A stretch of 36,086 bases of DNA from IMG/VR virus record IMGVR_UViG_3300010885_021444, positions 1-36,086 of that record; one strand, given 5' to 3'. The notes under the pieces are model-generated. The model worked only from the letters and a program-made list of their open reading frames with translations. It was not told where the DNA came from and ran no database searches. The translations under genes were made by a program, and so were the position numbers. Shown in pieces: positions 8,118 through 20,506 of this stretch; position 1 is the first letter of the stretch, and every line of letters begins with the position of its first letter. Source of the stretch: a virus.

Positions 8118-8423
8118 TTATTCCCAGTCATCCTTTTCCTGATGGAACTGATAACCGCCTGACTGTATCTGCTTCATCATGATTGACTCAGGAATAATAC
8201 CTAGTTCTTCACGCAGTCTTCTTCGATCTGCTTCCGTAGTACCGCCCCAGTATCCATCTACATCCCACTTTAACGCATACTCTAAGCATTCAGTCTTTGC
8301 CTCACAAGAGGCACAGATACCAGCTAGTACTGTTGGATATCGGGTAGCGCCAGGGGTATCTGGTAGAAAGAAAAGATTGGTATCAATGGACTCACACACT
8401 GGTGTAGCACTAGGTTTAAACAT
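8118..8423 (-). CDS. WhiB-family iron-sulfur transcriptional regulator
   Basis: 101 residues. The four cluster cysteines are Cys10, Cys37, Cys40 and Cys46 (the CxxC...C set in AGICASCEAKTEC), followed by the family's turn GYWGGTTEADRRRLR at about 57-71. WhiB proteins bind a [4Fe-4S] cluster and act with the primary sigma factor in actinobacteria; phage versions can repress or mimic host WhiB genes. The strong SD AGGAGG overlaps the end of the upstream FmdB-like gene. This is the best single indicator of an actinobacterial host. A GCCCAT/ATGGGC hairpin (8099-8114) follows its stop. Confidence 0.92.
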   Translation of the reverse strand: MFKPSATPVCESIDTNLFFLPDTPGATRYPTVLAGICASCEAKTECLEYALKWDVDGYWGGTTEADRRRLREELGIIPESIMMKQIQSGGYQFHQEKDDWE

Positions 8424-8591
8424 CTATCCTCCTGTTGAGTAGAAACCAGAAGCATTAAACTTAACTGGTACAGCAGACCATACGCGGCTCATAGACTGTT
8501 GGCAACAGGTTGGGACAGAGTCGTCACCAAAATCTTTTTGTATTTCTTGGACTGCTTTGCAGACCTCACATTTATAATCATATGTCGGCAT
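8424..8591 (-). CDS. FmdB-type zinc-ribbon protein
   Basis: 55 residues from ATG 8591 (MPTYDYKCEVCKAVQEIQK). The MPxYxYxCxxC start is the hallmark of the FmdB putative regulatory zinc ribbon; the second pair is CC at TCCQQS. An in-frame ATG at 8615 would add eight residues, but the family start is at MPTYDYKC. It overlaps the methyltransferase end by 14 nt and its tail carries the WhiB SD, so it is coupled to WhiB. It is probably a small nucleic-acid- or protein-binding regulator. Confidence 0.8.
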   Translation of the reverse strand: MPTYDYKCEVCKAVQEIQKDFGDDSVPTCCQQSMSRVWSAVPVKFNASGFYSTGG

Positions 8592-9159
8592 GTTTCTTAA
8601 CCCAGACTTGGACACCCTTCTCTAGTAGATCGTATTCACCCATGTGCCTGTCAAGGAACTTGTCAATGCCAGGCTTAGGAGCTAACGTCTGGTCAGCCAG
8701 AGCATCACCCCATGTGTAATCATCAAAGGCTAAAATACCTTCGGGCTTGAGTGCATACCATGCAGCTTCCCCATCCTCAAAGGTAACTCTTGCTGTGTGG
8801 TCTCCATCAATGTAAGCAAAGTCAAAGAGCCCTAGCTTTACATCTTTAAAGTATTCCTCACTTGTCATCTTGTACTTGATGCGGTTGCGGTAATGGGCTA
8901 GCTTCTCATCATAGGTACGCTCTACATCTTCAAAGTCCATCACATGATGGGCTCCCTCATCAGATCCTTGCCACGTATCGACATCTACAAGCGTACTAAA
9001 GGGGTGGGTCAGGATGTTCTCCATCAGCCACAGTGAAGCGTCGCCTGTAAAGACCCCTATCTGTAGTGCCCTGAAGCCTGCCTTACCACTATATCTAGTA
9101 AGGTATCTTTCAAAGTTCTGCTTTGCTGTACCGTTAAACCAGTTTGGGTATTCAGTCAC
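8578..9159 (-). CDS. SAM-dependent methyltransferase (class I, MTF_24-like)
   Basis: 193 residues from GTG 9159, with GGATGA upstream. Residues 31-41 (ALQIGVFTGDA) match the SAM-binding glycine motif; VDVDTWQG is the acidic strand 2; FDFAYIDGDH is the conserved strand-4 motif of the cephalosporin-hydroxylase/MTF_24 group; LKPEGILAFDDYTWGD follows as expected. Members act on small molecules or sugars. The glycosyltransferase two genes upstream makes glycan or nucleotide modification a reasonable guess. The substrate cannot be read from the sequence. Confidence 0.8.
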   Translation of the reverse strand: MTEYPNWFNGTAKQNFERYLTRYSGKAGFRALQIGVFTGDASLWLMENILTHPFSTLVDVDTWQGSDEGAHHVMDFEDVERTYDEKLAHYRNRIKYKMTSEEYFKDVKLGLFDFAYIDGDHTARVTFEDGEAAWYALKPEGILAFDDYTWGDALADQTLAPKPGIDKFLDRHMGEYDLLEKGVQVWVKKHADI

Positions 9160-9340
9160 GTTCTATCATCCAGTCTATAGGTGTGGGTGCAGTGGTAATA
9201 GCACCGCATTCTTTGCACTTCTGTGCTAGGTCATACCATGACACCTCGCGTGTCTCGTTGTCCCACATCACAGTAATCTCAAACATAAGGCAACCACATA
9301 TGCAAGCCATAGTGGGCTCGCCTCTAAGATCATGTGGCAT
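9152..9340 (-). CDS. Zinc-ribbon small protein
   Basis: 62 residues from ATG 9340 (MPHDLRGEPTMACICGCLMF). Cys pairs CICGC and CKECG are about 29 residues apart, forming a likely zinc ribbon, with WDNETREVSWYDLAQK between. A later ATG at 9310 has a better-placed GAGG, so the protein may begin at MACICGC. It overlaps the glycosyltransferase end by 11 nt and the methyltransferase start by 8 nt. Confidence 0.65.
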   Translation of the reverse strand: MPHDLRGEPTMACICGCLMFEITVMWDNETREVSWYDLAQKCKECGAITTAPTPIDWMIERD

Positions 9341-10079
9341 CTTGGTTATTCCAAAAAAACTTGTAGTACTCAACGTCAAGGGCAAAGCGTTTCATATGCT
9401 TGACCGTTGCTCCTGTGTGTGAGTAAAGCGGTACGCCTGCCTGCCCCATAAGCTTAAAGAAGTTGATGTCTTCGGATACAAAGTTTTCGCCAACCCCAGT
9501 CTCATTAAAATATGGGATAGAACCATGAGCTTTACGCATGGCTGTTACTGCGTTGCGATGCATCAGCACAAACCCAAACCCTGCTGAACCTACCTTGATA
9601 AGAGCATCCTTAGGCAAAGGGTGAACGTATCTAATCTTGTAGTCATCCCCTTCAACCCAGTCAAAGATAGCAGGATACGGAGCCATGAGGCTACGCTCAT
9701 TCTCTTTAGAGATGAAGTAAGTACCAGTAACTACTGGTCTATCCTTTGCATCTGCTGCTGCCCATACTTTTTGCAAAGCTTCTTCGGTAAGGACAATGTC
9801 GCTATCTACCCATAGCACCCAGTCAAAGCCACTGTTGTCATACCAGTGCTCTAGTGCTACCTGACGTTGCCGTCCTATCTGGTTGCCTTGTACACGCATA
9901 GCTGACTTGATGGGTAGCTGTGAAGTTAAAGCAGAGTAGACAGTGCCCTCTGCAAACTTGCCATCTACTAAGCCGTTATCACACCAGCATAGAATGATCT
10001 CGCCTTTATTCCTCTGGGGCATCGTAGTCTGGGTCTTCATTGGTGGCAACGCCTGCTTCTTCTTGTGTGTCTTCGTCAT
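9330..10079 (-). CDS. Glycosyltransferase (GT2-like)
   Basis: 249 residues from ATG 10079, chosen for the GGAG 8 nt upstream; starts at 10040 and 10022 are possible and would overlap the previous gene less. The fold begins at KGEIILCWCDNG. WVLWVDSDIVLTEEAL carries the DxD-type metal/nucleotide-sugar motif; VTGTYFISKEN and VGSAGFGFVLMHR are typical later strands of GT-A enzymes. It transfers a sugar from a nucleotide donor to an unknown acceptor (phage DNA, virion protein or host glycan). The methyltransferase downstream may act in the same pathway. Confidence 0.78.
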   Translation of the reverse strand: MTKTHKKKQALPPMKTQTTMPQRNKGEIILCWCDNGLVDGKFAEGTVYSALTSQLPIKSAMRVQGNQIGRQRQVALEHWYDNSGFDWVLWVDSDIVLTEEALQKVWAAADAKDRPVVTGTYFISKENERSLMAPYPAIFDWVEGDDYKIRYVHPLPKDALIKVGSAGFGFVLMHRNAVTAMRKAHGSIPYFNETGVGENFVSEDINFFKLMGQAGVPLYSHTGATVKHMKRFALDVEYYKFFWNNQDAT

Positions 10080-10689
10080 GGTATGGTCTCCAACCACCTA
10101 GATGTTGTACTAAAGATGCCAGCGCTCGCTGGACTTTCATTCGTGCGCCATCAGCGCTAGTGTCCCATTCGGTTGCTAGGGTAGCCCAGTCAGCGCTCTC
10201 ATCCATAAAGCGCAGACGCAAGATGTTCTGCTTGGTCTCTGATATTTTATTAAAAGCTCCAGCTATATCAGCACGTAACGCTAGCCAGTTCATGCCATCG
10301 CTAATCTCACCGCCACTAAACTGGAAGTTAAGATCTTTGATCTTGGCTGGCATCTCGTATGACTCAAGAATAATGGTAGGCAAGAACGTCTCTACTACTG
10401 AGATGTCGTAGTAGTAAAGATCGGTTGTGTCGTACCCTTGCTGCCGTGCCTTTTCTTTTTCGCAATACTTAAGTACTTGATTGCGTAGGGACTTGGCTAT
10501 TAGCCTATCCCTTTCTTTTTCAGGGAAGGATAGCCATTCTTTAAACTTACGAGGATGAGAGACAAACCAAAGATTTTGCTCTTGTACAAGATCCTCATGC
10601 TCTACCATTTGGTAGCGTTTTTTGTACTCAGAAGCGATACGCGCTACCATCTCTGAGTACTCTAGCCATTCTTCTGTATGGTGTCTCAT
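10006..10689 (-). CDS. Sigma-factor-like/HTH DNA-binding protein
   Basis: 227 residues. The C-terminal third (FNKISETKQNILRLRFMDESADWATLA, then a helix with SADGARMKVQRALASLVQHL) resembles sigma region 4 and its helix-turn-helix. The N-terminal part (EDLVQEQNLWFVSHPRKFKEW) resembles a degenerate region 2. The acidic tail after residue about 205 is disordered. Proteins of this size and layout occur in actinophage replication clusters and may redirect host polymerase or act as DNA-binding factors. ATG 10689 overlaps the preceding stop (ATGA). Confidence 0.65.
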   Translation of the reverse strand: MRHHTEEWLEYSEMVARIASEYKKRYQMVEHEDLVQEQNLWFVSHPRKFKEWLSFPEKERDRLIAKSLRNQVLKYCEKEKARQQGYDTTDLYYYDISVVETFLPTIILESYEMPAKIKDLNFQFSGGEISDGMNWLALRADIAGAFNKISETKQNILRLRFMDESADWATLATEWDTSADGARMKVQRALASLVQHLGGWRPYHDEDTQEEAGVATNEDPDYDAPEE

Positions 10690-11435
10690 GGAAGGCGGAT
10701 GTCACCATCAATGATAGGGATAGCATAGGGGATAACATTACGATTGCTTTGTACCAGCATACCTATGCCTTGTTGCCAGTTAGCAATACCTGAAGTTAAG
10801 TAACTTGCTTTCTTAATATCCATCAAGTGCCCAACTTCAAGACCAAAAAGAGTTTTAGTCTTGCCATTGAGACCAGTAGTCTGGTGCTGTAGTCCCATCT
10901 TATGAGTATGTCCACACACTACAGACTTGCCTAGCTTATTGGCTAGGCTCATAGCAGTAGATCCTGGTACACGATTCATAGACGACTCGTCTCCGTGTGC
11001 CATGACCCAGCCCGGTAACAACTCACGCATCTTATGTAGATACGTGATGTCTAAAGAACGATACCCCAGCAACTCTTCTACCTTGAGTGATTCAAGTGAA
11101 GCAAATGCTGGGGCATATTTCTTAATGTAAGTTTGGATACGGTCTGTGTGGTTAGATCTCTGAATGATAAACGGTTTACGTTTACCCAATGCCAGTCGGA
11201 AATCTAACATAATGTTATACGTCTGGTCTATTGAATCTTGCAAAGTTTCTGCATATTCACCAGCCATATTCTTATTCCACCTTGACGGTTCTGGTGCATC
11301 TAGCTCATCGCCAACACACCAGAGTTCATCTGGTTTTTCTTGCCGAATAAAACTGAGTACAGTCTTTACGGCAAGAGGATCATGATAAGGTATCTGGAGG
11401 TCAGATAATACTATTACCTTCTTGGTTCTGCTCAT
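10686..11435 (-). CDS. Calcineurin-like metallophosphoesterase
   Basis: 249 residues from ATG 11435 (MSRTKKVIVLSDLQIPYHDP). Metal-site motifs in order: SDLQ (11-14, in place of DxH), GDELD (42-46), RSNHTD (93-98, in place of GNHD/E), MAHGDE (145-150), GHTHK (175-179). The family hydrolyses phosphodiesters or phosphomonoesters, including DNA ends and nucleotides. It lies in the replication cluster, so a DNA-repair or nucleotide role is likely. The unusual SDLQ replaces the first metal-binding His with Gln, as in some phage members. A GTG-like longer start at 11480 lacks support. Confidence 0.82.
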   Translation of the reverse strand: MSRTKKVIVLSDLQIPYHDPLAVKTVLSFIRQEKPDELWCVGDELDAPEPSRWNKNMAGEYAETLQDSIDQTYNIMLDFRLALGKRKPFIIQRSNHTDRIQTYIKKYAPAFASLESLKVEELLGYRSLDITYLHKMRELLPGWVMAHGDESSMNRVPGSTAMSLANKLGKSVVCGHTHKMGLQHQTTGLNGKTKTLFGLEVGHLMDIKKASYLTSGIANWQQGIGMLVQSNRNVIPYAIPIIDGDIRLP

Positions 11436-11718
11436 TGGCAGGTACGCCTTCCCACTGTCCACGTTGGACAAGCAGACCAATTATTGCATAATTAGCTAGA
11501 TCAAGTAGGGTATCTTCCAATGATTCGTACTTTGGCGTGTCGCCTGTATCCAGTAAGTTATTAAGTCTAGCCAACTTGTCATACATGCGTACTCGTAATC
11601 CATTCATTGGACCACCAGGAGCACCGGCAATATTCATAGGACCATAGTCCTTATGCTTATCGTAAAGGGTCTGAAGTAGTTGATTTACAATGACTTCAGC
11701 ATCACTTGGGTTCTTCAT
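11401..11718 (-). CDS. DUF1599/Nmad1-like protein (nucleotide-modification associated)
   Basis: 105 residues. The HKDYGPMNI segment and the MYDKLARLNNLL...ESLEDTLLDLANYAIIGLL helix pair match the DUF1599 family, also named nucleotide modification associated domain 1. The family recalls MazG-like all-alpha NTP hydrolases and occurs in phages near genes for modified bases; its reaction is not firmly established to my knowledge. AAGGAAG precedes the ATG; it overlaps both neighbours. Confidence 0.7.
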   Translation of the reverse strand: MKNPSDAEVIVNQLLQTLYDKHKDYGPMNIAGAPGGPMNGLRVRMYDKLARLNNLLDTGDTPKYESLEDTLLDLANYAIIGLLVQRGQWEGVPANEQNQEGNSII

Positions 11719-12013
11719 CTAGTACTTCCTTTACACTCATTTCAAAGTTCTTCATAGATTCTTTGACATCTAATTCCTGCCATACCTTCTCGGCTTGCCC
11801 TAGTGGGGCAGCCACAAGGATAGCAGCCAAGCCTATGATTAGCTCTAGCCCATCTGCTTGGTCAGCCTTGGTTACATAGTAGATATCATAGAGTGCACCG
11901 AGCAGGTCAAGCATTTTCTTCTCGGTTACTTGGATACCAATAGATCCATCCATGTGACGGACATGTTCCCAAATACTTTCATCAAGAGGCAAAACAATTT
12001 CTGACTCGCTCAT
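11702..12013 (-). CDS. Unknown small acidic protein
   Basis: 103 residues from ATG 12013 with a GAAAGGA site. It is mainly helical; residues about 34-85 include a hydrophobic helix (LELIIGLAAILVAAPLG) that may be a core helix rather than a membrane segment. No family recognised. It overlaps the primase C-terminal gene by 32 nt and the Nmad1-like gene by 17 nt, so it belongs to the replication operon. Confidence 0.55.
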   Translation of the reverse strand: MSESEIVLPLDESIWEHVRHMDGSIGIQVTEKKMLDLLGALYDIYYVTKADQADGLELIIGLAAILVAAPLGQAEKVWQELDVKESMKNFEMSVKEVLDEEPK

Positions 12014-12611
12014 CTATCCATTCCTTTCCTAGTTTAATGAAGGCGCTGTTTACGTCTTCACCTTCTGGCATCTGTACTACATTGGTATTGGGTAGCTCAC
12101 GTGCTATTTTCTTACCAAACTCTGCACCTGCATTGTCTCCGTCTGCTAGGACTATGACTGTATCAAAGTCATCTAGAATTCTAGAGTAGTGAGGCTTCCA
12201 GTTGTTAGCACCAGGCACACCTACAGTAGGGTGCTCGGTTTTAACAGACATAATAACACAATCAAATTCACCTTCGGTAACACAGATATAATTACTTCTA
12301 GCAAAGATTGCTGTTGTATTAAACATAGTAGTCTTGGCACCTAGCATGCCCATGTACTTAGGATCTTGTCCGTTCATAGCACGAAAGCGTATGTCTACCA
12401 CACCACTAGGTGTGAGGTAAGGTATAGCTAAACGTCCAGCAAATATTTCATGACCCGGTAGAGGATCTACGACTACCCCCAGGTGAAATCGACGAGCCTC
12501 GTCTACCGATAGATGCCGAGTTGAAAGATACTCCTCGGCTAGATCGATACGGTTTGCGTACTGTTGGGTTGCCCGTAGTAGAAATTGTCGATGCGAATTC
12601 GATAGCCTCAC
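11982..12611 (-). CDS. DNA primase, C-terminal (Toprim) part in a second frame
   Basis: 209 residues from GTG 12611. It carries the Toprim core: the catalytic glutamate in VTEGEFDCV (E113) and the metal-binding DxD in VLADGDNAG (D157, D159), preceded by an RNA-polymerase-like basic segment (GRLAIPYLTPSGVVDIRFRAM). DnaG-type primases make RNA primers for lagging-strand synthesis. The zinc domain that should precede it is in the gene at 12448-12828, in the -1-relative register: passage into this frame needs a +1 shift (or -2) within 12611-12448. Stops lie directly upstream of the GTG in this frame. Confidence 0.8.
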   Translation of the reverse strand: MRLSNSHRQFLLRATQQYANRIDLAEEYLSTRHLSVDEARRFHLGVVVDPLPGHEIFAGRLAIPYLTPSGVVDIRFRAMNGQDPKYMGMLGAKTTMFNTTAIFARSNYICVTEGEFDCVIMSVKTEHPTVGVPGANNWKPHYSRILDDFDTVIVLADGDNAGAEFGKKIARELPNTNVVQMPEGEDVNSAFIKLGKEWIDERVRNCFAS

Positions 12612-12828
12612 TTAGACTTATACCTTTCTCATTCATAATTAAATCGTATGTATCACCTGATACACCACAACCATGACACTTGAATCTGTTAGCATCAAAG
12701 TTAACAGCACTACTTGCATTAGTGTCTTTATGGAATGGACAACGCATTTTACGCCATCCACTACCACGGGCTGGAACTGTAGCACCTATGTGGCGCAAGT
12801 AATCTTCAATGGAATGTTTATCACCCAT
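12448..12828 (-). CDS. DNA primase, N-terminal CHC2 zinc-finger part
   Basis: 126 residues. Zinc ligands Cys30, His33, Cys51 and Cys54 (RCPFHKD...FKCHGCGVSGD) are those of the CHC2 primase zinc domain, followed by the usual helix DLIMNEKGISLSEAIEFA. After about residue 80 the sequence becomes Ser/Arg/Gly-rich and looks out of frame, whereas the other frame then encodes the expected primase sequence. It is therefore either half of a two-subunit primase or the N-terminus of a primase made by frameshifting. It overlaps the resolvase-like gene by 8 nt. Confidence 0.8.
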   Translation of the reverse strand: MGDKHSIEDYLRHIGATVPARGSGWRKMRCPFHKDTNASSAVNFDANRFKCHGCGVSGDTYDLIMNEKGISLSEAIEFASTISTTGNPTVRKPYRSSRGVSFNSASIGRRGSSISPGGSRRSSTGS

Positions 12829-13162
12829 TCTTTATTGCCCTTCTTAAGAGTTCAATCCATACAGTAGCAGGCTGGGTGCAGTACCAACGCCCCACGTCGG
12901 TAGTACCTTTACGTTTATGAAGTACCGTCCCTGTCCAAGCAGAATCATTATTCATTTCTGTTTCAAGTTCTGCAACCCAACCAGCCAAGTCCATCTTAGC
13001 GTGATTCTTTATTTCAATAGTAACTCCTGGTATGCCAGAAATATCACCTTTGTCTAAGGTAGCTCCAGCTAAACGACGATCAGCATATGGGAACCATTGC
13101 TTGAGCCATTTAACTACATCTAATTCTGCTTTGCTACCCTTAGCCTTGGATGCACTGGTCAT
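12821..13162 (-). CDS. PD-(D/E)XK nuclease, Holliday-junction-resolvase-like
   Basis: 113 residues. GSKAELDVVKWLKQWFP gives the N-terminal Glu13 helix; KGDISGIPGVTIEIKNH gives Asp40, Glu50 and Lys52 of the PD-(D/E)XK site, spaced as in archaeal Hjc-type resolvases and phage VRR-like nucleases. It probably resolves branched DNA or helps in recombination and packaging. Start ATG overlaps the helicase stop as ATGA. Confidence 0.78.
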   Translation of the reverse strand: MTSASKAKGSKAELDVVKWLKQWFPYADRRLAGATLDKGDISGIPGVTIEIKNHAKMDLAGWVAELETEMNNDSAWTGTVLHKRKGTTDVGRWYCTQPATVWIELLRRAIKNG

Positions 13163-13983
13163 AGTAAAGTCACTTGCTCCTGTCTATTATCACGCACTAC
13201 ATCTTCAAGATACATACTGGCTGGATCAAAGGATAGGTTGACATATGTCTGACCTGTATGATCTGCCTTGCCATACCTGTTCTTGACTGGTGCTACACAC
13301 AGATAAACATCCTCTGTATTAGGCAGAGTAATCTGCCCAACTGTTAGCACCATTGCCGGTATCTGGGCTACTTTACCCTGCAAAGCAGAGCGGGGTTGAC
13401 ACGGATAACCAGGCGATCCTTCTTGTGTATGGTGCAGTACTAGGACACAAGCATTGGTATCTCTTGCAAGATACTTCAACTCTTTCATAGCTGCACGCAT
13501 ACCAGCAAACTCCTCATGCCCATCCATTGCAATGTCCATCAGATTGTCTACGACAATAAGAGAAGGACTCCTGCCCCAGATAGTTTCGAAGGCAGACACT
13601 TCTTCATCTAAGTCTTTCAATGTGGGTGACGGTTCGAAAGACCAGTACAAATGATTGTTGTCTGCAAGCAAAGACTCAGCTTTATCAGGGTCGGTCTTTA
13701 ATATATTTTCAGCAGACTGTTGCGTCATCTTGCCTGACATAGCCATCAAACGCATAGCCATGGTGTGTGCATTAGTATCTGCTGAGAAGTACAGCGTCGG
13801 TTGTTTCAACCTAGCTGCAATATGTAAAGCAATAGATGACTTACCAGCACCAGGAGTGCCAGCAATAATCGTTACCTCTGCACGACGAAGGATAATACCA
13901 CTGCGTTCAAAGGCTTGAAAGGGAGGGGCTAATGGCTCCCCTCCCACTTCATGCTTACGTACTGAGCGACGTAATGTTTTCAT
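13159..13983 (-). CDS. DnaB/RecA-type helicase ATPase
   Basis: 274 residues. Walker A is GTPGAGKS (42-49) and Walker B is SLIVVDNL (141-148); LARDTNACVLVLHHTQEG holds the sensor-type His, and KNRYGKADHTGQ holds a likely arginine-finger loop region. The length fits only the C-terminal RecA-like domain of DnaB, with no N-terminal primase-binding domain, as in many actinophages. It probably unwinds DNA ahead of the phage fork with the split primase two genes downstream. The start overlaps the previous stop (TAATG). Confidence 0.82.
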   Translation of the reverse strand: MKTLRRSVRKHEVGGEPLAPPFQAFERSGIILRRAEVTIIAGTPGAGKSSIALHIAARLKQPTLYFSADTNAHTMAMRLMAMSGKMTQQSAENILKTDPDKAESLLADNNHLYWSFEPSPTLKDLDEEVSAFETIWGRSPSLIVVDNLMDIAMDGHEEFAGMRAAMKELKYLARDTNACVLVLHHTQEGSPGYPCQPRSALQGKVAQIPAMVLTVGQITLPNTEDVYLCVAPVKNRYGKADHTGQTYVNLSFDPASMYLEDVVRDNRQEQVTLL

Positions 13984-14441
13984 TACTTGATACGATCAGG
14001 TACGAATGTATTCCATTCCGGTTCAAACTTCTGAATGTATTGGGTGCGACACTTATCGTTTGCACCTTGTGGTGTAGGGCAGAAGTAACCCTTGTACACA
14101 CCACCAGTTTTAGCTGGACCCTGAAGTGCAGTCATCTTGCCATGAGCACAAGAGCGTCCCCCATCAAGGGATGGGGTACCGCTAAAAGGTGGAGTATCCT
14201 GCTGACTGATGACTGTGCCACCCAATGATGAAGCAGCATATCCAACAGCAGGACTTACCGGTGTTGCTTGAGGCGCACCCTTGCGTAGAGCTGACTCAAG
14301 TTCTGTAACTGCAGACTCAAGAGCAGCAAGCGCTGAACTTACCAGCGCATCTAATTGATCTCCGTTATCTGCACGTACAGTAACAAGCGATCCAGCGGTA
14401 GTTTTAACAGTGATACTGATTGGTGATTCAGTACTACTCAT
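13983..14441 (-). CDS. Unknown protein with C-terminal zinc-binding motif
   Basis: 152 residues. The first 55 residues are beta strands plus an Ala/Leu/Glu-rich helix; the middle is Pro/Ser-rich; the C-terminus has CAHGKMTALQGP...KGYFCPTPQGANDKC, a Cys/His cluster that recurs in actinophage replication-module proteins. A single-strand-DNA or nuclease-partner role is suggested by its place between the helicase and the exonuclease, not by a recognised domain. Confidence 0.55.
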   Translation of the reverse strand: MSSTESPISITVKTTAGSLVTVRADNGDQLDALVSSALAALESAVTELESALRKGAPQATPVSPAVGYAASSLGGTVISQQDTPPFSGTPSLDGGRSCAHGKMTALQGPAKTGGVYKGYFCPTPQGANDKCRTQYIQKFEPEWNTFVPDRIK

Positions 14442-15216
14442 GTGGTATTTCCTCTATTCTTTCTGTTAGTTCCTTAGCTTTCTGCCAAGTTCTTACTTTG
14501 TCTGCTAATTGTATACCCTTCCAACCTCTGGCAATGTTAACGAAATGCAGTTCACATTTACCTGAGCCAGCTGGCAGATGTACAATGATACCCTTCTCTT
14601 GGTTTACGTCACCCCATGACGAACGGGTTGCCGTAGCAGGGTCATACGGCAGCCCGTGAGCATAAACTGCTAGTTGCATAGCAATCTTACCTGGGTGCGA
14701 GATACTTCCTGTCTTAAGATCTGATATGAATAGCTCACCTTTGTACCGTACAACACGATCCGGTGTACCTGCAATCTTGTATTTATCCAAGACACAAAAC
14801 TGTTCAATGAATACATTCTCAAACGCAGCAGTTGCTTCAGCGTATGCCTTGAGGTCAGGCAAGTATTCATCAGGCACTACGCCTACTTCCTCATCACGGT
14901 CAATCTTTTCCGTGAGCGCATGTATAGCAGTACCAATGGTAGCCTGACGAGTAGCACCCGCTGCTTCCATTGCATCTTCAATTAACTTATTTAAAGCTAG
15001 CTTATCTTCACGCGCAGCAGTAGCAGCCAGCAGTAAATCAGGACGCTGCGTCAAACCAATAGCAGCCATGCGTAATTTCCATGCTACCAATGCAGACCCA
15101 TCATCTAATGAGCCAGCCAGTGTAGTTGTACGAGTGTATGGTACTGGCTTCCCACCTTTAACTGGCACAACCATAGGTCTGCCATAACGATCTCTAAGTA
15201 CTTCTACTTGTGCCAT
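14434..15216 (-). CDS. RecB/Cas4-like PD-(D/E)XK exonuclease
   Basis: 260 residues. Motifs in order: GTAIH (95-99), GTPD (150-153), ISDLKTG (164-170, with Asp166 and Lys168) and MQLAVYA (180-186), the RecB-nuclease signature. Only two cysteines are present, so the iron-sulfur cluster of true Cas4 is missing. It probably processes DNA ends for recombination or recycles host DNA. Its SD, AAAGGGGACA, sits next to ATG 15216 and is complementary, with one bulge, to a segment about 90 nt upstream in the transcript. Confidence 0.82.
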   Translation of the reverse strand: MAQVEVLRDRYGRPMVVPVKGGKPVPYTRTTTLAGSLDDGSALVAWKLRMAAIGLTQRPDLLLAATAAREDKLALNKLIEDAMEAAGATRQATIGTAIHALTEKIDRDEEVGVVPDEYLPDLKAYAEATAAFENVFIEQFCVLDKYKIAGTPDRVVRYKGELFISDLKTGSISHPGKIAMQLAVYAHGLPYDPATATRSSWGDVNQEKGIIVHLPAGSGKCELHFVNIARGWKGIQLADKVRTWQKAKELTERIEEIPHE

Positions 15217-15217
15217 A

Positions 15218-15328
15218 TGTCCCCTTTAATAAGGCTGACTGGGTAAGGAGAAAGTATGAAAGACCTACCCAGCCAGCCCATAGAGGATACCACAAAACCA
15301 GCATAGTTGTATACTTGAAAGGAGGACA
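15218..15328 (-). promoter_or_regulatory. Structured leader with anti-SD before the exonuclease
   Basis: In the minus-strand transcript TGTCCTCCTTT (15328-15318) can pair with the exonuclease SD AAAGGGGACA (15227-15218), giving 10 bp with one bulged U. Between them a 13-bp hairpin forms (15266-15278 with 15233-15245, one G-U, 20-nt loop). This would hide the ribosome site unless the outer pairing is opened. No known riboswitch class is recognised. Confidence 0.5.
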
Positions 15329-15365
15329 CGCCTATGCTGCTCCGCCGTCTATGGTATCACATTTA

Positions 15366-15482
15366 TTAACCGTCGCACCTGCAACCAGCAGCTGTGGCGG
15401 AACCACAGAAGCATAGCTCATCATAGTCAACGTCTTTGCCAAGGGCTATGTCATCGCCCTCTAGCCATTGAGGTTCACTCAT
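15366..15482 (-). CDS. 38-residue Cys-rich micro-protein
   Basis: ATG 15482 with GGTGG upstream; product starts MSEPQWLEGDDIALGKDVDY and ends with CFCGSATAAGCRCDG, a CxC...CxC cluster that could bind zinc. It lies between the amidotransferase and the exonuclease leader. The N-terminus is acidic. It resembles other tiny metal-binding proteins in this window, but no family is recognised. Confidence 0.5.
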   Translation of the reverse strand: MSEPQWLEGDDIALGKDVDYDELCFCGSATAAGCRCDG

Positions 15483-15624
15483 TATTTCCACCACCATGTT
15501 ATACGGTATTTCCAAAACAATAGAGCAATTGAAAAACAACTATCAGATTTACTATAGTATACACTAATTGTAAATCCCCCACCATCTCCATGTGTGTAAC
15601 GTTGTATAAGTATGGGTTTTAATT
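15483..15624 (-). promoter_or_regulatory. AT-rich intergenic stretch, possible promoter
   Basis: 142 nt without a gene, AT-rich compared with its flanks. It contains a perfect palindrome TACTATAGTA (15550-15559) inside TATACTATAG-like -10 sequences, but no good -35 match at the right spacing. A promoter for the 38-residue gene and the exonuclease operon is possible. Confidence 0.3.
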
Positions 15625-16437
15625 TTACCATGCAGCCCACGACCCATTGCTAGATAGCTTGCTGTTGGTAGTTTTGCTGAAACACATACATGAATCAACT
15701 ACTTGACTACAGTCAGAGCATGCACCACAATAGAAGCATGCACCATCATACAGCTCAAGCATATCCTCTGTATTGACTGACTTACAGTTGAAACACTCAA
15801 CCTCAAACTCATCATAGTATCCATCATAAGATCCATAAGGCTTGAGTACAGAAGGCTTGCTAGCCCATGAGGTGAGGTAGCAGGAATCATTAGACCACCA
15901 TACACCTGATTCATCTTTCTTACCCTTCTCCTCATGGATAAGGTAGCATTGGTACTCAGCACGTGGGTCTACAGTAAGCACACACACCTTGGAACCAGAG
16001 GTAAAGTCTTCAATAATGTTATACAACTGTTCGTTGTCTAACGCCTTGACGCCACCCATATCATGCAGAATATCTTCTGCAAAGATACGTGTGTCGCTGC
16101 GGTCAGTACCATCCTCAAGCACTGGCAAGATACCATTGTGTGCTAGGTAGGTTTGAGTATCATGACCAACTGAGAACGGATGACAGTTGGCTATTGTCTG
16201 TGAGCCATGCGTAGCAAGGCGGGCATGCCACATAGCATACCCTTCTGGGTACTTACCACGGAGCTCAAGGAATTTATTGACTGCCTCATCAGGATTCATT
16301 GTACGTTCTACAATGATACGTTTATCGGCTGGTATTACAATCGCAAAGCCAAAGCCATGCGGGTTATTGAGAGCTGAGTTCTCTAGCTTCTCACGTGATG
16401 GTACTACGTTAGGCGGAACTACACATAGCATACACAT
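15625..16437 (-). CDS. Class II glutamine amidotransferase
   Basis: 270 residues beginning MCMLCV, so removal of Met1 exposes Cys2, the N-terminal nucleophile of Ntn-type amidotransferases. Other family motifs: NNPHGFGF (24-31), HARLATHG (71-78), CHPF (85-88), LAHNG (98-102) and SDTRIF (114-119). The enzyme releases ammonia from glutamine for a partner synthetase. The last about 50 residues add a Cys-rich zinc-ribbon tail (CFNC, CFYCGACSDC, CMC) not found in metabolic relatives. It is coupled by TAATG to the amidoligase, with a GAGGAG SD, which makes that protein the obvious partner. Confidence 0.85.
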   Translation of the reverse strand: MCMLCVVPPNVVPSREKLENSALNNPHGFGFAIVIPADKRIIVERTMNPDEAVNKFLELRGKYPEGYAMWHARLATHGSQTIANCHPFSVGHDTQTYLAHNGILPVLEDGTDRSDTRIFAEDILHDMGGVKALDNEQLYNIIEDFTSGSKVCVLTVDPRAEYQCYLIHEEKGKKDESGVWWSNDSCYLTSWASKPSVLKPYGSYDGYYDEFEVECFNCKSVNTEDMLELYDGACFYCGACSDCSQVVDSCMCFSKTTNSKLSSNGSWAAW

Positions 16438-18092
16438 TAGTTATTCTCCTCATCGTTGGTTGTTGTATCTGATTCAAACGTTTCGTTAATAATAATAAAG
16501 AGATTCGGATATGTCTCAGAGTTAGCTGATACATAGGCTACGAATCTAGCCCATGAGAATGGCTTAAGTTTAGGCACAATTTCTAGGGCACGGGTATACT
16601 CTGTTACTGCATGAACAAACTCAATGGCAGACAGCACACGTTCTTTACGCAGTGAACCCTTGAATACACGCACCTCTAAGGTATGTTCATTCTGTACATT
16701 GACTGCGCTATAACGATTCATGTCATGACTTTTGTTCTTGATCTTAGGAATAGCTTTACCCTTGTCATTGAAGGTAGCATAGTTAGAAGTACGACCAGCA
16801 ATGCGCTTGACCTGACGTTCATTGTCATAGATAAACTTAGTAAATCTAATTTGATGATTGTCATTAACAAATGCAGTCAAGCCTACATGCACATGGATAC
16901 CACATGAACTAGCATCCCATGATCGATAGCCCATACTGCGTAGTTTATCAAGCCATTTCCAATCAAGGCTGTGATATTCTTTAAGACTGTGAGGATGAGT
17001 AACAACCTCAAAGCCATAGCTTAATGAGCCATCTGATTTAAGATATAAACGTTTGCCATGGTCAGCAAAAGTAGATACATACTCAGCACCTTCACGTAAG
17101 TTAGCGCGACGTTGGCTAGCTTCTACCTCTAGCTCAATGCCCATGTATACACGGTCATCACCAAAGAATCTAGGCGATGGCTTGTAATTGTAGTTATAAA
17201 TATAACTACTGCCTTCATCGTTTTCTTCACAGTCATGACCGTCATCCTCTTGATACTCATAACCACAATCACCGCATTCAATGTACTCATCATAGCATAA
17301 TTGACAACGGTAATCACCATAGTGATTTGAATAAATAAGATTGTCACTATAATAAGTGGCACATGAATCACACTGTGAATAATCTGTATCATCAGGATTA
17401 AAGCATGAAGTACATACCCATTTGTTATCTAATAAGTTACGATCAACTGCATGAGTACCACGATATATATGATGCTCATTACAATCATTACATACAAATG
17501 CACAGCTACCATGAACATTATGTTGCTCACCATCAGAACCTGTGGCTACAAATGTACGGTGCCCTGAACTAGCAGCACTAACAGGTAACAGGATTTGATC
17601 ACAAGCATGACAGTTATCTAATACTGTAGTAGCATTTGGAAAGATACCATCAGGCAAGATAGAACTAAATTGATTACGTGTTATGTGATGATCATAATCA
17701 TATAGACTAACACCTAAAATACGTGAACGAATACATACCTTACACATTGCATTTGTATTTGTTAGTGTATACAAAGAGTAATTACTGTCATCACTAACAG
17801 GAGCAATAACATAGTACTGTGCATACCAACCTGGTACTGTGCTGTTTCTATGAAGTACTGAGTATGTATACAAAACACGTGGATCATAACAATGACTACA
17901 CGTACCATATTCATCTTCAGTTAACGTGATATTGATTGTTGCAAGTACATCTACACGACGCACTTCATAATCCCCAATGGGATCATACAATGCACTGATT
18001 GCATCTGCATGTATATTGCCATCTTGATTTAAGATAGCAGCTTGGATCTCTGGGTAAGTAAATACCTCAGGAGGAACCAATGTATCTGGCAT
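16437..18092 (-). CDS. COOH-NH2 ligase-type amidoligase with zinc-ribbon N-terminus
   Basis: 551 residues. The C-terminal half has the glutamine-synthetase-fold amidoligase motifs: MGIELEVE (317-324), LKSDGSL (351-357), GFEVVTHPHS (360-369), SCGIHVHVG (396-404), and NRYSAVNV/EVRVFKGS (459-480). These bind ATP/metal and join a carboxylate to an amine. The N-terminal half (65-290) is a chain of CxxC knuckles (CSHC 65, CKVC 117, CHAC 161, CNDC 201, CTSC 227, CDSC 241, CQLC 263, CGDC 273), probably several zinc ribbons for binding a protein or nucleic acid. With the adjacent amidotransferase it would form an ammonia-fed amidation system. The substrate is unknown. Confidence 0.82.
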   Translation of the reverse strand: MPDTLVPPEVFTYPEIQAAILNQDGNIHADAISALYDPIGDYEVRRVDVLATINITLTEDEYGTCSHCYDPRVLYTYSVLHRNSTVPGWYAQYYVIAPVSDDSNYSLYTLTNTNAMCKVCIRSRILGVSLYDYDHHITRNQFSSILPDGIFPNATTVLDNCHACDQILLPVSAASSGHRTFVATGSDGEQHNVHGSCAFVCNDCNEHHIYRGTHAVDRNLLDNKWVCTSCFNPDDTDYSQCDSCATYYSDNLIYSNHYGDYRCQLCYDEYIECGDCGYEYQEDDGHDCEENDEGSSYIYNYNYKPSPRFFGDDRVYMGIELEVEASQRRANLREGAEYVSTFADHGKRLYLKSDGSLSYGFEVVTHPHSLKEYHSLDWKWLDKLRSMGYRSWDASSCGIHVHVGLTAFVNDNHQIRFTKFIYDNERQVKRIAGRTSNYATFNDKGKAIPKIKNKSHDMNRYSAVNVQNEHTLEVRVFKGSLRKERVLSAIEFVHAVTEYTRALEIVPKLKPFSWARFVAYVSANSETYPNLFIIINETFESDTTTNDEENN

Positions 18093-18117
18093 AGCTTTCT
18101 CTCTTTCTCTTTGTTAG

Positions 18118-18549
18118 TTAGTACCAACCGTGAGTACGGTGGTGTGACCAAGCAATAGACGGCTTATCATATCTGGCTGATATGTATGCCAGTCCCCGCT
18201 CAATTTGCAGCGGGGCTGGCGTCTCAGGATTCAGCCCTAAGATCTGAGGTATACCCCCAGCATGTTCGCCAGATAATTCATCGACGTGTTTATTGAATGC
18301 CTCTGCTCTCCAGTTAGATTCGCTAGTCCACAATTTGTTTAACGCTTTCCACTCACTAAGATTCCAACCATAAGCAGCAGCTCTGGTTTTAGCATAACCT
18401 TTAGCCAGACGTGGAGTCCAGTAACCTTGCGGTAAATCACAGGTAGCACGCTCAATGATAGGAGAAGTTTGATGCTGAGCAAATCCAAAAAAAGATATTA
18501 CCATCAACATAAAAGCATTGAACGTTGCACTAATCTGTAGTTTATTCAT
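18118..18549 (-). CDS. Exported transglycosylase-like protein
   Basis: 143 residues from ATG 18549, which overlaps the previous stop (TAATG) and has GGAG upstream. Residues 11-24 (NAFMLMVISFFGFA) form a signal peptide or anchor. The rest is a lysozyme-like domain of the actinobacterial type: WKALNKLWTSESNW with catalytic-type Glu77, AGGIPQILGLNP, LQIERGLAYISARY and a terminal AWSHHRTHGWY. Such domains cleave peptidoglycan glycan strands. It lies in the replication-side operon beside the amidoligase, not with the endolysin, so it may act early at the wall or be a second lysis enzyme. Confidence 0.75.
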   Translation of the reverse strand: MNKLQISATFNAFMLMVISFFGFAQHQTSPIIERATCDLPQGYWTPRLAKGYAKTRAAAYGWNLSEWKALNKLWTSESNWRAEAFNKHVDELSGEHAGGIPQILGLNPETPAPLQIERGLAYISARYDKPSIAWSHHRTHGWY

Positions 18550-18779
18550 TACACTCTCCATGTCTGCCTGAGTATAGGCTCACCGGTTACAACACGTATC
18601 AATGCTACGCTAGCAGTAAACTCCGCTTCACTCTTACGAGCAAGCGCCCGTCTATAGTATGCTAGCGCATCATCATACGAATCAAAGTATCTTACTACTT
18701 CATCAGGTCTATGATCTGAATAGGTAAGTACTTTGAATTCTTTATCTTGTTCAGCTATATCAGTTAAGTACATATGCAT
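18549..18779 (-). CDS. Unknown small protein
   Basis: 76 residues from ATG 18779 (MHMYLTDIAEQDKEFKVLTY); an ATG at 18773 is an alternative. A YFDSYDDALAYYRRALARKS stretch forms a helix after a short strand; its pattern (strand, then D-A-x-x-Y-Y-R-R helix) suits a small alpha/beta host-interaction protein. It overlaps the upstream gene by 20 nt and is coupled to the transglycosylase-like gene by TAATG. No family recognised. Confidence 0.5.
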   Translation of the reverse strand: MHMYLTDIAEQDKEFKVLTYSDHRPDEVVRYFDSYDDALAYYRRALARKSEAEFTASVALIRVVTGEPILRQTWRV

Positions 18780-18972
18780 CAACGATCTCAGGAAAAACTT
18801 CGCTTTTATTAATAACCGAACGAAGTTCTTTCATGTTAGTTGACACACATAAGCTATGGTTACGTAGCCAAGCATGTTTACTGGCTGAACTTATTTCATA
18901 CCAATTAGATGGCAAATTATTTGTTTCATATACATCATCAATCATTACTGTATGGTTAATAGCTATGCGCAC
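18760..18972 (-). CDS. Unknown small protein
   Basis: 70 residues from GTG 18972, which overlaps the previous stop (TAGTG); GAGAGGA lies upstream. Sequence starts MRIAINHTVMIDDVYETNNL; the remainder (WYEISSASKHAWLRNHSLC) is mixed alpha/beta. No family recognised. One of a run of tiny tightly coupled genes between NADAR and the amidoligase. Confidence 0.5.
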   Translation of the reverse strand: MRIAINHTVMIDDVYETNNLPSNWYEISSASKHAWLRNHSLCVSTNMKELRSVINKSEVFPEIVDAYVLN

Positions 18973-19193
18973 TATCGATCCTCTCGTCCCTCTAATGCCA
19001 TCATCTTATAGTACTCATCGATGTCTAGTCCAACAGGCTCGGGCTCAAGTACTGACTCGACATGTAGCACAGCGTCGTTCACAAACGGAACGCCGTACTT
19101 GTCAGCCAGGTCGGCTGTCGCATAGGCAGCAGCATCCTCAGCTGAGTTGCATTCTTGAAACGATACAGTTTTAAAGACAACTTTATATTTCAC
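18972..19193 (-). CDS. Unknown small acidic protein
   Basis: 73 residues from GTG 19193 with a strong AAGGAG 7 nt upstream. MKYKVVFKTVSFQECNSAED begins with a beta strand, then a helix (AAAYATADLADKYG), and ends acidic (LDIDEYYKMMALEGRED). No family recognised. It starts inside the end of the 50-residue membrane protein gene. Confidence 0.55.
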   Translation of the reverse strand: MKYKVVFKTVSFQECNSAEDAAAYATADLADKYGVPFVNDAVLHVESVLEPEPVGLDIDEYYKMMALEGREDR

Positions 19194-19335
19194 GTGGCAA
19201 CTCCTTTATGAAGTTACGTAAGTAACGGTTACGTTCTTGCAGTTTAGCATTAGCCATGGTAGTAAGCACAAGCAGCACAGTACTGCTGGTTAGTGCAATC
19301 ATAATACCGAATACAGTTCCCATATTAAGGTACAT
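19183..19335 (-). CDS. 50-residue one-TM protein
   Basis: ATG 19335 with AGGAGG 5 nt upstream; an ATG at 19338 lies too close to the SD. MYLNMGTVFGIMIALTSSTV continues as a membrane segment (about residues 6-27), followed by a basic helix (KLQERNRYLRNFIKELPRE). It overlaps the next gene by 11 nt. Possibly a small membrane effector or superinfection-exclusion protein; only the topology is visible. Confidence 0.55.
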   Translation of the reverse strand: MYLNMGTVFGIMIALTSSTVLLVLTTMANAKLQERNRYLRNFIKELPREI

Positions 19336-19358
19336 CATATCCTCCTAGTGTTGACGAA

Positions 19359-19382
19359 GCCCCTGCCGTAGGGTTCAGGGGC
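19359..19382 (-). promoter_or_regulatory. GC-rich hairpin before the 50-residue gene
   Basis: GCCCCTG (19359-19365) and CAGGGGC (19376-19382) form a 7-bp stem with a 10-nt loop. It overlaps the last codons of the 55-residue gene and lies just upstream of the strong SD of the 50-residue gene. There is no T-tract, so it may set the level of read-through or translation rather than terminate. Confidence 0.35.
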
Positions 19383-19542
19383 GAGGCAACTGGAACATAG
19401 AGGGACCTGATAGGATCCCTTTCAGTTCATCAGCTACCAACTTACAGTTGTTGCAGCCACACTCAGTAAACTTATTACTGATGCGTAGTATATCGGACAG
19501 CCTAACCTCATAGGTAGGCATAGGTGCTGCGTGTTTGCTCAT
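19375..19542 (-). CDS. 55-residue protein with CxC..C motif
   Basis: ATG 19542 overlaps the NADAR stop (TAATG), with GGAG upstream. Product starts MSKHAAPMPTYEVRLSDILR and holds ECGCNNCKLVADELKGIL, a Cys cluster (CGCNNC) that could bind metal. The stop is at 19375-19377. No family recognised; coupling to NADAR suggests co-expression. Confidence 0.5.
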   Translation of the reverse strand: MSKHAAPMPTYEVRLSDILRISNKFTECGCNNCKLVADELKGILSGPSMFQLPRP

Positions 19543-19946
19543 TATGCTAGCTCCAATCGTATATCCATTAATATATTACCAAGCATATTCTTGCCTATTC
19601 CATTACATACCCCCCAGTAGGTATCGCCCCAGGTATTTTCTTCGACGATCTCTTCATTACCCGTAGCTATTAATTTCTTAGCTAAGTCTGGATGCTGCAC
19701 GAACTTAGCCTTTACTATATCGTACATAATTTGCAATCGATCTGCATCCCAGTCATCTTGGATCTTAACTTTCTTACCCAAGGCTTTGGCTTCAGCACCA
19801 GTTAACTTAATAAACCGGTGCTGCTCATACCCGTCCGCGCATTTCTGCGCCTGAAAGGCAGCTTCAGCATTCCTATATGCCAAACCGCCATACTCAACAG
19901 TACACTCCCAGAAGTTCGAGAGGTAAGTATCTTTAATGCTATTCAT
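19542..19946 (-). CDS. NADAR/YbiA-family N-glycosidase
   Basis: 134 residues from ATG 19946, with AAAGGG upstream; a TTG at 19952 is an alternative start. Family motifs in order: YLSNFWEC (8-15), NAEAAFQAQK (26-35) with Glu28, DDWDADR (64-70), IMYDIVKAKFVQHPDLAKKL (73-92), TGNEEIVEENTWGDTYWG (95-112) and GIGKNMLGNILMDIR (116-130). YbiA-like enzymes cleave N-glycosidic bonds of ribosylated compounds; NADAR proteins linked to DarT1-type toxins remove ADP-ribose from guanine in DNA. In a phage, repair of such damage would be an anti-defence function; that role is inferred. Confidence 0.88.
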   Translation of the reverse strand: MNSIKDTYLSNFWECTVEYGGLAYRNAEAAFQAQKCADGYEQHRFIKLTGAEAKALGKKVKIQDDWDADRLQIMYDIVKAKFVQHPDLAKKLIATGNEEIVEENTWGDTYWGVCNGIGKNMLGNILMDIRLELA

Positions 19947-19953
19947 TATCAAC

Positions 19954-20427
19954 TCACCCTTTCACTAATGGACGTTCGCAATCAAAGCATACTTTATGCC
20001 CGCGAGTTTGCACAATGAAGCACCAAGGACATACGATCTCTCTGGCTCCGAGCTCCAGGCTTTCGCCTAAGCCCATCGCTAAGTTCGGACTCATACAGTC
20101 CTCAAGGTGCACAGTTTGCGGGCGTAATTCATCTGGACGATTAGTCCAATCATGCCCACTTATAGGCTCAATATCTCGCAACCAAGGACGGCGATACTGC
20201 TGATTGCCTTCATCGACAATCTCATGAGCCTTATCGGCAAGCCTAGACTCACGCTTATCAGCGCATTCTAGGCACATAACTTGCCTATCATCTAACATGC
20301 ACACCAGACTAATTCCTGATATGCAGCCTGGACATTGGCGATCTGGCTCGATCCACTCGGGATCAATCACCAGCTCACGATGCCCTAACTCATACCCATC
20401 ATCATCAATTCCGTCATCGTAAAGCAT
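19954..20427 (-). CDS. Zinc-ribbon protein (two CxxC pairs twice)
   Basis: 157 residues from ATG 20427, which has AAAGGA 7 nt upstream; an ATG at 20454 lacks an SD. The N-terminus is very acidic (MLYDDGIDDDGYELGH). Two zinc-ribbon pairs are visible: CPGC...CLEC (about 31-57) and CPWC...CFDC (about 132-150). It may be a nucleic-acid-binding or protein-adaptor protein. It is the first gene of the long minus-strand operon after the terminator at 20507-20540. A decayed copy of its start region appears at about 21360-21400 on the plus strand. Confidence 0.6.
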   Translation of the reverse strand: MLYDDGIDDDGYELGHRELVIDPEWIEPDRQCPGCISGISLVCMLDDRQVMCLECADKRESRLADKAHEIVDEGNQQYRRPWLRDIEPISGHDWTNRPDELRPQTVHLEDCMSPNLAMGLGESLELGAREIVCPWCFIVQTRGHKVCFDCERPLVKG

Positions 20428-20506
20428 AACAGAATCCTTTCGTAATCCTGACATACGACTTGCACGCCAGTACCGAGAGCTAGGCAGAGGCTGCCTTGCT
20501 CGACAG

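What the first reader, a model, noticed from the sequence alone, without database searches (positions are those of the whole stretch)
15625..18092. Amidoligase and class II amidotransferase as an ammonia-fed modification pair
A COOH-NH2 amidoligase with eight N-terminal CxxC knuckles is coupled by TAATG to a glutamine amidotransferase that has its own zinc-ribbon tail. Amidoligases of the glutamine-synthetase fold are known from comparative genomics to pair with such amidotransferases in phages, with unknown targets. The long zinc-ribbon arm suggests a macromolecular target. The next gene upstream encodes an exported wall hydrolase, so a carboxylate of peptidoglycan or a cell-envelope protein is one possible target.
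Basis: partly seen in the sequence, partly recalled or inferred. Interest (0 to 1): 0.72.

Follow-up and report, generated by a model that had tools for sequence, protein, structure and literature searches.

The report
Phage zinc-armed amidoligase–amidotransferase gene pair
A freshwater phage carries two coupled genes that very likely form a two-part enzyme, one part stripping ammonia from glutamine and the other using ATP to attach it to a carboxyl group; phages and mobile elements of very different bacteria almost always keep the two together, but what gets amidated is still unknown.

Summary
Window 16437-18092 (-) is a 551-aa PF12224 amidoligase with exactly eight N-terminal CxxC motifs. 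Window 15625-16437 (-) is a 270-aa class II glutamine amidotransferase with a Cys-rich tail. They are coupled by TAATG.

Models show a glutamine-synthetase/YbdK fold and an Ntn-hydrolase fold; the expected catalytic residues are invariant. In relatives sampled through the terminase, the genes are present together (33) or absent together (15), never singly. The module also occurs in mobile elements of gut Firmicutes (GATase beside 74 of 79), Marvin-like mycobacteriophages, mycobacterial plasmids, and OM43 and Acinetobacter phages. Zinc-armless PF12224 proteins (55 examined) have no class II amidotransferase nearby, so the arm goes with the class II partner and may be a docking element rather than a target reader.

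The cell-wall inference is not supported: the transglycosylase gene is adjacent in only a minority of relatives and persists where the pair is absent.

The pair is a published kind (Marvin, OM43 phages; hypothesis of Iyer 2009). Less expected are the conserved zinc arm tracking class II GATase and a DUF932 cassette filling the same slot in sister phages. Target unknown.

The parts
16437..18092 (-). Amidoligase (PF12224), 551 aa, zinc-armed
   Evidence: ORF; Pfam PF12224 37.6 bits; PHROG 16683 E 1.5e-40, function unknown; 64-sequence alignment
17229..17900 (-). N-terminal zinc arm, residues 65-288: eight CxxC plus H286/C288; the last four CxxC and C288 (residues 227-288, bases 17229-17414) are invariant in phage and gut homologues
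   Evidence: weak LIM-domain profile hits, best 1ibi E 1.6e-4
16458..17159 (-). Glutamine-synthetase-fold ligase domain, residues 312-545, with invariant E320, E322, D354, S356, E362, H400, H402, R434, R460, E473, R475
   Evidence: AlphaFold2 model pLDDT 82; Foldseek/VIA hits YbdK 1r8g Z 13.2, GCL, GmaS, GS, Dop/PafA; invariance
15625..16437 (-). Class II (Ntn) glutamine amidotransferase, 270 aa
   Evidence: model pLDDT 86, best hits GFAT/GlmS glutaminase domain, EgtC; invariant C2, R73, N101, G102, D115
15682..15795 (-). Cys-rich C-terminal tail of the amidotransferase, residues 215-252, probable zinc ribbon
   Evidence: C215, C218, C234, C237, C240, C243, C252 invariant in 80 phage homologues; CxxC also in the Marvin tail, none in the MEP402, ctgrD200 or Acinetobacter phage GATases
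16435..16439 (-). TAATG stop/start overlap, translational coupling
   Evidence: sequence; spacing -1 nt or about +33 nt in relatives
18118..18561 (-). Upstream neighbour: exported transglycosylase-like protein, probably not part of the module
   Evidence: not linked to the pair across relatives
15482..15631 (-). 49-aa microprotein overlapping the GATase stop; subclade-specific
   Evidence: homologues in L342, L344, L338
15366..15482 (-). 38-aa acidic Cys-containing microprotein MSEPQWLEGDD..., TAATG-coupled to the preceding microprotein
   Evidence: homologues in L001, L044, L046, L054, L056, L074

Best explanation
The two genes encode a two-subunit, glutamine-dependent amide synthetase. The Ntn subunit releases NH3 from glutamine with Cys2. 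The glutamine-synthetase-fold subunit activates a carboxylate with ATP as an acyl phosphate and joins it to that NH3, giving a primary amide. The conserved zinc arm most likely holds the two subunits together and/or presents a protein substrate. Shown: both folds in prediction, the conserved catalytic residues, obligate co-occurrence, and the module's presence in phages and mobile elements of several bacterial groups. Inferred: the chemistry, the physical complex, and a cytosolic protein carboxylate (host or phage) as the most likely target in an early host-takeover role.
For: Pfam, PHROG and fold matches. Invariant residues in 53-64 diverse homologues. Pair present together or absent together in terminase-sampled relatives: 9 both, 13 neither, 0 single and 24, 2, 0. 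GATase beside 74 of 79 zinc-armed homologues in bacterial genomes. 55 armless PF12224 proteins from 796 genomes have no class II GATase in the locus, and 20 of 20 have none within about 6 kb. AMI and GAT distances correlate at r 0.89, or 0.84 given terminase, above every other gene tested. The module is in hosts with and without an outer membrane and lies near replication/exonuclease genes, not lysis or structural genes.
Against: No biochemistry exists for this branch that I could find. The amidotransferase scores just under Pfam's cut-offs. No complex was modelled. The genomic context names no substrate, and no conserved peptide gene sits next to the pair. The WhiB gene next to the pair in the large sister clade also shows a high partial correlation (0.71), so part of the AMI-GAT correlation is physical linkage.
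Confidence: 0.65

Rival explanations
1. The pair amidates a carboxylate of peptidoglycan precursors or another envelope component, changing the host surface or wall and excluding other phages (the hypothesis of Iyer 2009 for phiEco32, as cited in later papers; the first reader's guess).
For: Published hypothesis (quoted in PMC10580990, and PMC11318856). Wall amidation by a ligase plus a glutaminase exists (MurT-GatD, PMC3267633, listed). A glycosyltransferase-like and a methyltransferase gene lie elsewhere in the window.
Against: The transglycosylase neighbour is not linked to the pair. The module occurs in hosts with very different envelopes, including Gram-negative ones. GatD is a class I, not class II, amidotransferase (own knowledge).
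Confidence: 0.17
2. The pair makes a small amidated metabolite or modifies a free amino acid or peptide, serving nitrogen metabolism, signalling or neutralisation of a host molecule.
For: GS-fold relatives YbdK, glutamate-cysteine ligase and GmaS act on small molecules. A phage with amidoligase and amidotransferase was suggested to help nitrogen use (PMC10945688).
Against: A long, conserved zinc arm is unusual for such enzymes. There is no consistent biosynthetic neighbour.
Confidence: 0.15
3. The pair modifies nucleic acid, with the zinc arm as a DNA/RNA-binding element.
For: Zinc ribbons often bind nucleic acid. The pair sits near replication and exonuclease genes. Phages do use glutamine-dependent DNA modification (dG+ phages, PMC6884629, listed).
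Against: No 7-deazaguanine or other base-synthesis gene among the window ORFs scanned. An amidoligase needs a carboxylate, which normal bases lack.
Confidence: 0.05

Closest known systems
Mycobacteriophage Marvin gp105-gp106 (cluster S) amidoligase/amidotransferase pair
   Same: Same gene order, about 29-34% identity, zinc motifs in both proteins, annotated as glutamine amidotransferase domain proteins.
   Different: Four CxxC in the arm instead of eight; 79-nt gap instead of TAATG; at the far right end of the genome; gp105 falls just under the Pfam cut-off.
OM43 phages MEP401/MEP402 amidoligase and GATase (PMC10580990)
   Same: Adjacent PF12224 and class II GATase genes.
   Different: Single zinc ribbon and no Cys tail on the GATase.
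LUZ24/tf/UFV-P2-type amidoligase + amidotransferase + ATP-grasp cluster
   Same: PF12224 and GATase_6 genes in one early operon; a similar arrangement in Rhizobium phage RHph_N3_13.
   Different: The window pair has no ATP-grasp or GGCT-like gene among the neighbouring ORFs scanned; the RHph amidoligase lacks the zinc arm and its genes are not adjacent.
Chromosomal/ICE PF12224 amidoligases
   Same: Same Pfam family and core motifs.
   Different: No zinc arm and no class II GATase; the neighbour is a class I-type GATase in three Proteobacteria loci read, and a gamma-glutamylcyclotransferase-like gene in one Bacillota locus.
MurT-GatD peptidoglycan amidation
   Same: Ligase plus glutaminase using ATP and glutamine to amidate a carboxylate (general logic).
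   Different: Mur-ligase fold plus class I amidotransferase; no homology claimed.

Membership tests
PF12224 amidoligase (GS-like COOH-NH2 ligase) | Sequence match above the curated cut-off | tested here: met
   37.6 bits vs 22
PF12224 amidoligase (GS-like COOH-NH2 ligase) | Glutamine-synthetase fold | tested here: met
   Model residues 312-551 match YbdK (Z 13.2, 221 aligned, rmsd 4.6), GCL and GS
PF12224 amidoligase (GS-like COOH-NH2 ligase) | Conserved ExE, D-x-S, HxH and E-x-R active-site motifs | tested here: met
   E320/E322, D354/S356, H400/H402, E473/R475 invariant in 64 sequences
PF12224 amidoligase (GS-like COOH-NH2 ligase) | ATP-dependent amide formation | not testable with these tools
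   needs protein
Class II (Ntn) glutamine amidotransferase | N-terminal Cys after Met, Arg, Asn-Gly, Asp catalytic set | tested here: met
   M1-C2, R73, N101-G102, D115 invariant
Class II (Ntn) glutamine amidotransferase | Sequence match above the curated cut-off | tested here: inconclusive
   25.7 vs 27 and 21.5 vs 23 bits for one protein; the family profile finds PurF/GFAT at E down to 7e-10
Class II (Ntn) glutamine amidotransferase | Ntn-hydrolase fold | tested here: met
   GFAT/GlmS and EgtC are the best fold matches
Phage amidoligase-amidotransferase pair of the Marvin/OM43 kind | Adjacent, co-directional amidoligase then class II GATase that co-occur | tested here: met
LUZ24-type cluster | ATP-grasp ligase in the same operon | tested here: not met
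   No ATP-grasp match among the larger ORFs from 8118 to 20454 that were scanned; small ORFs were not scanned
Superinfection-exclusion / cell-wall modification system | Altered envelope and reduced adsorption | not testable with these tools
   needs experiment; the supporting neighbour argument fails
LIM domain | Match to a LIM profile or fold | tested here: inconclusive
   Alignment profile hits LIM chains at E 1.6e-4, but cytochromes c also appear at 0.002; no Pfam LIM match; arm not modelled alone
Pup ligase/depupylase (PafA/Dop) | GS fold plus a Pup-like tag substrate | tested here: inconclusive
   Dop and PafA are among the fold matches, but no conserved tag gene is next to the pair

The most novel reading that the evidence does not exclude
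A zinc-armed amidoligase plus class II amidotransferase is a distinct, mobile protein-amidating effector module shared by phages, phage-plasmids and integrative elements. It disarms or reprograms a conserved cytosolic host protein by neutralising a carboxylate, and it occupies an early-gene slot that in sister phages is filled by a DUF932 cassette of related purpose.
Probability: 0.15. Interest if true: 0.75.

Novelty: new member of a known kind. Interest (0 to 1): 0.42.

Why it matters
Phage amidoligase-amidotransferase pairs have been predicted since 2009 and are annotated in cultured mycobacteriophages, yet I found no paper with a demonstrated substrate. Showing that the pair is a strict module, that the zinc arm goes with the class II partner, and that the cell-wall clue does not hold narrows the search and gives a tractable laboratory system (Marvin gp105-gp106 in Mycobacterium smegmatis).

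Tried and rejected
Wall-hydrolase adjacency as target evidence: rejected, because the adjacency is subclade-specific and the gene persists without the pair. A conserved peptide substrate next to the pair: the first downstream ORF falls into several unrelated microprotein families, so rejected as a general feature. DUF932 as a strict functional substitute: Marvin carries both a DUF932 match and the pair, and some gut elements have both close together, so the mutual exclusion is a property of this phage lineage only. Armless means no amidotransferase at all: rejected, since three Proteobacteria loci read have a class I-type GATase downstream. A natural amidoligase-GATase fusion in L039: the GATase lacks its first residues including Cys2, so it is likely an assembly or deletion artefact. 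A PDB sequence match to the amidoligase domain: none, only zinc-finger-like hits to the arm. Known-defence library: no match for either protein. VIA-align rows cover only residues 311-551, so the fold of the zinc arm remains untested. The 2009 primary paper and the Marvin genome paper are not held; what they say is taken from papers citing them.

Full report
Observation. Both genes are real and as described. The amidoligase has exactly eight CxxC motifs N-terminal to its ligase domain, and the amidotransferase begins Met-Cys and ends in a Cys cluster. Stop and start overlap as TAATG. The window is a 36-kb virus record. A WhiB-family gene at 8118-8423 points to an actinobacterial host, since WhiB is an actinobacterial family (own knowledge).

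Catalytic integrity. In 64 amidoligases, 26-77% identical to the window protein, the Glu-x-Glu, Asp-x-Ser, His-x-His and Glu-x-Arg motifs are invariant. In 53 amidotransferases Cys2, Arg73, Asn101-Gly102 and Asp115 are invariant. AlphaFold2 gives confident models (pLDDT 82 and 86). The ligase domain (residues 312-551) matches YbdK, glutamate-cysteine ligase, GmaS and glutamine synthetase. The amidotransferase matches GFAT/GlmS and EgtC.

Coupling. Among 80 viral loci fetched with the amidotransferase, every contig with room has the amidoligase directly upstream; the three exceptions end at a contig edge, and L039 carries an odd in-frame merger. Sampling through the terminase, which is not chosen on the pair, gives 9 both, 13 neither, 0 single in one clade, and 24 both, 2 neither, 0 single in another. 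Related phages are not independent, so these counts are not a probability. The AMI-GAT distance correlation is 0.89, and 0.84 after removing terminase distance. The neighbouring WhiB gene also reaches 0.71, so part of it is linkage.

Breadth. The module recurs in Marvin-like mycobacteriophages, mycobacterial plasmids, OM43 phages, a Manatee Spring podovirus and an Acinetobacter phage, and in 79 loci from bacterial genomes, mostly gut Oscillospiraceae. Of these 79, 74 have the class II amidotransferase beside the amidoligase. Resolvase, integrase, DUF3846, DUF960 and YqaJ-nuclease genes recur nearby, typical of mobile elements. One genome has four copies, each with its amidotransferase. Real exceptions are L260, L264 and L292.

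The zinc arm. The last four CxxC and C288 are invariant even between phage and gut versions, and the first four are extra in the phage clade. A survey of 796 genomes for PF12224 found 55 proteins without the arm and none with a class II amidotransferase in the locus; four of five armed ones had it. Twenty armless loci read to about 6 kb either side also had none. Armless proteins can have a class I-type amidotransferase or a cyclotransferase-like gene next door instead. The armless amidoligase of Clostridioides phage AR1086-1 lives in a genome with no GATase_6 match at all. The arm therefore tracks the class II partner. A docking role is my inference; substrate recognition is not excluded. OM43 and Acinetobacter versions keep only one ribbon. 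The LIM resemblance is weak and may be driven by Cys spacing.

The wall clue. The transglycosylase gene next door (18118-18561) is adjacent in the window-like subclade only. In the larger sister clade it lies about 6.3 kb away on the opposite strand. It is present in all 13 relatives that lack the pair. It therefore says nothing about the target.

The slot. In those 13 relatives the place between the transglycosylase and the exonuclease holds a DUF932 gene (TIGR03299 'phage/plasmid-like protein') and an unknown gene of about 148 aa. Elsewhere DUF932 and the pair coexist, so equivalence is not claimed.

Mechanism and standing. The best reading is glutamine-dependent, ATP-driven amidation by a two-subunit enzyme. 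A protein carboxylate is favoured over wall, metabolite or nucleic acid because the module works in hosts with different envelopes and carries a conserved zinc arm, but that step is inference. The pair itself is a published kind: it is reported in OM43 phages, and the earlier hypotheses for phiEco32 and Marvin are quoted in PMC10580990 and PMC11318856. Hence 'new member of a known kind'.

Noticed in passing
L118:4265-5908, L161:4010-5738, L116:5014-6633: In 13 of 13 terminase relatives lacking the pair, a DUF932 (TIGR03299) gene plus an unknown ~148-aa gene fill the same slot between transglycosylase and exonuclease.
   Followed up: partly
window 15366-15631 (-): Two tiny genes follow the amidotransferase, a 49-aa protein and a 38-aa acidic Cys-containing protein MSEPQWLEGDD..., the second TAATG-coupled; the family at this position differs between subclades.
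   Followed up: partly
window 8118-8423 (-): WhiB-family gene; in the large sister clade the WhiB gene is the close downstream neighbour of the pair.
   Followed up: partly
window 19542-19952 (-): NADAR-domain protein (PF08719, E 4e-26), possibly NAD/ADP-ribose related; weak match to a PADLOC candidate model.
   Followed up: no
window 8578-10097 (-): Methyltransferase-like (PF13578) and glycosyltransferase-like genes next to the WhiB gene.
   Followed up: no
L292:7671-10808 and L300, L304, L286, L318: In gut mobile elements zinc-armed amidoligase, DUF932 and YqaJ recombinase-type nuclease genes lie close together; in L292 DUF932 follows the amidoligase directly and no amidotransferase was found.
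   Followed up: partly
L269:5118-7360: Two amidoligase genes in tandem followed by one amidotransferase.
   Followed up: no
L039:2446-4026: In-frame merger of an amidoligase C-terminal part with an amidotransferase lacking its catalytic Cys; probably an assembly or deletion artefact.
   Followed up: no
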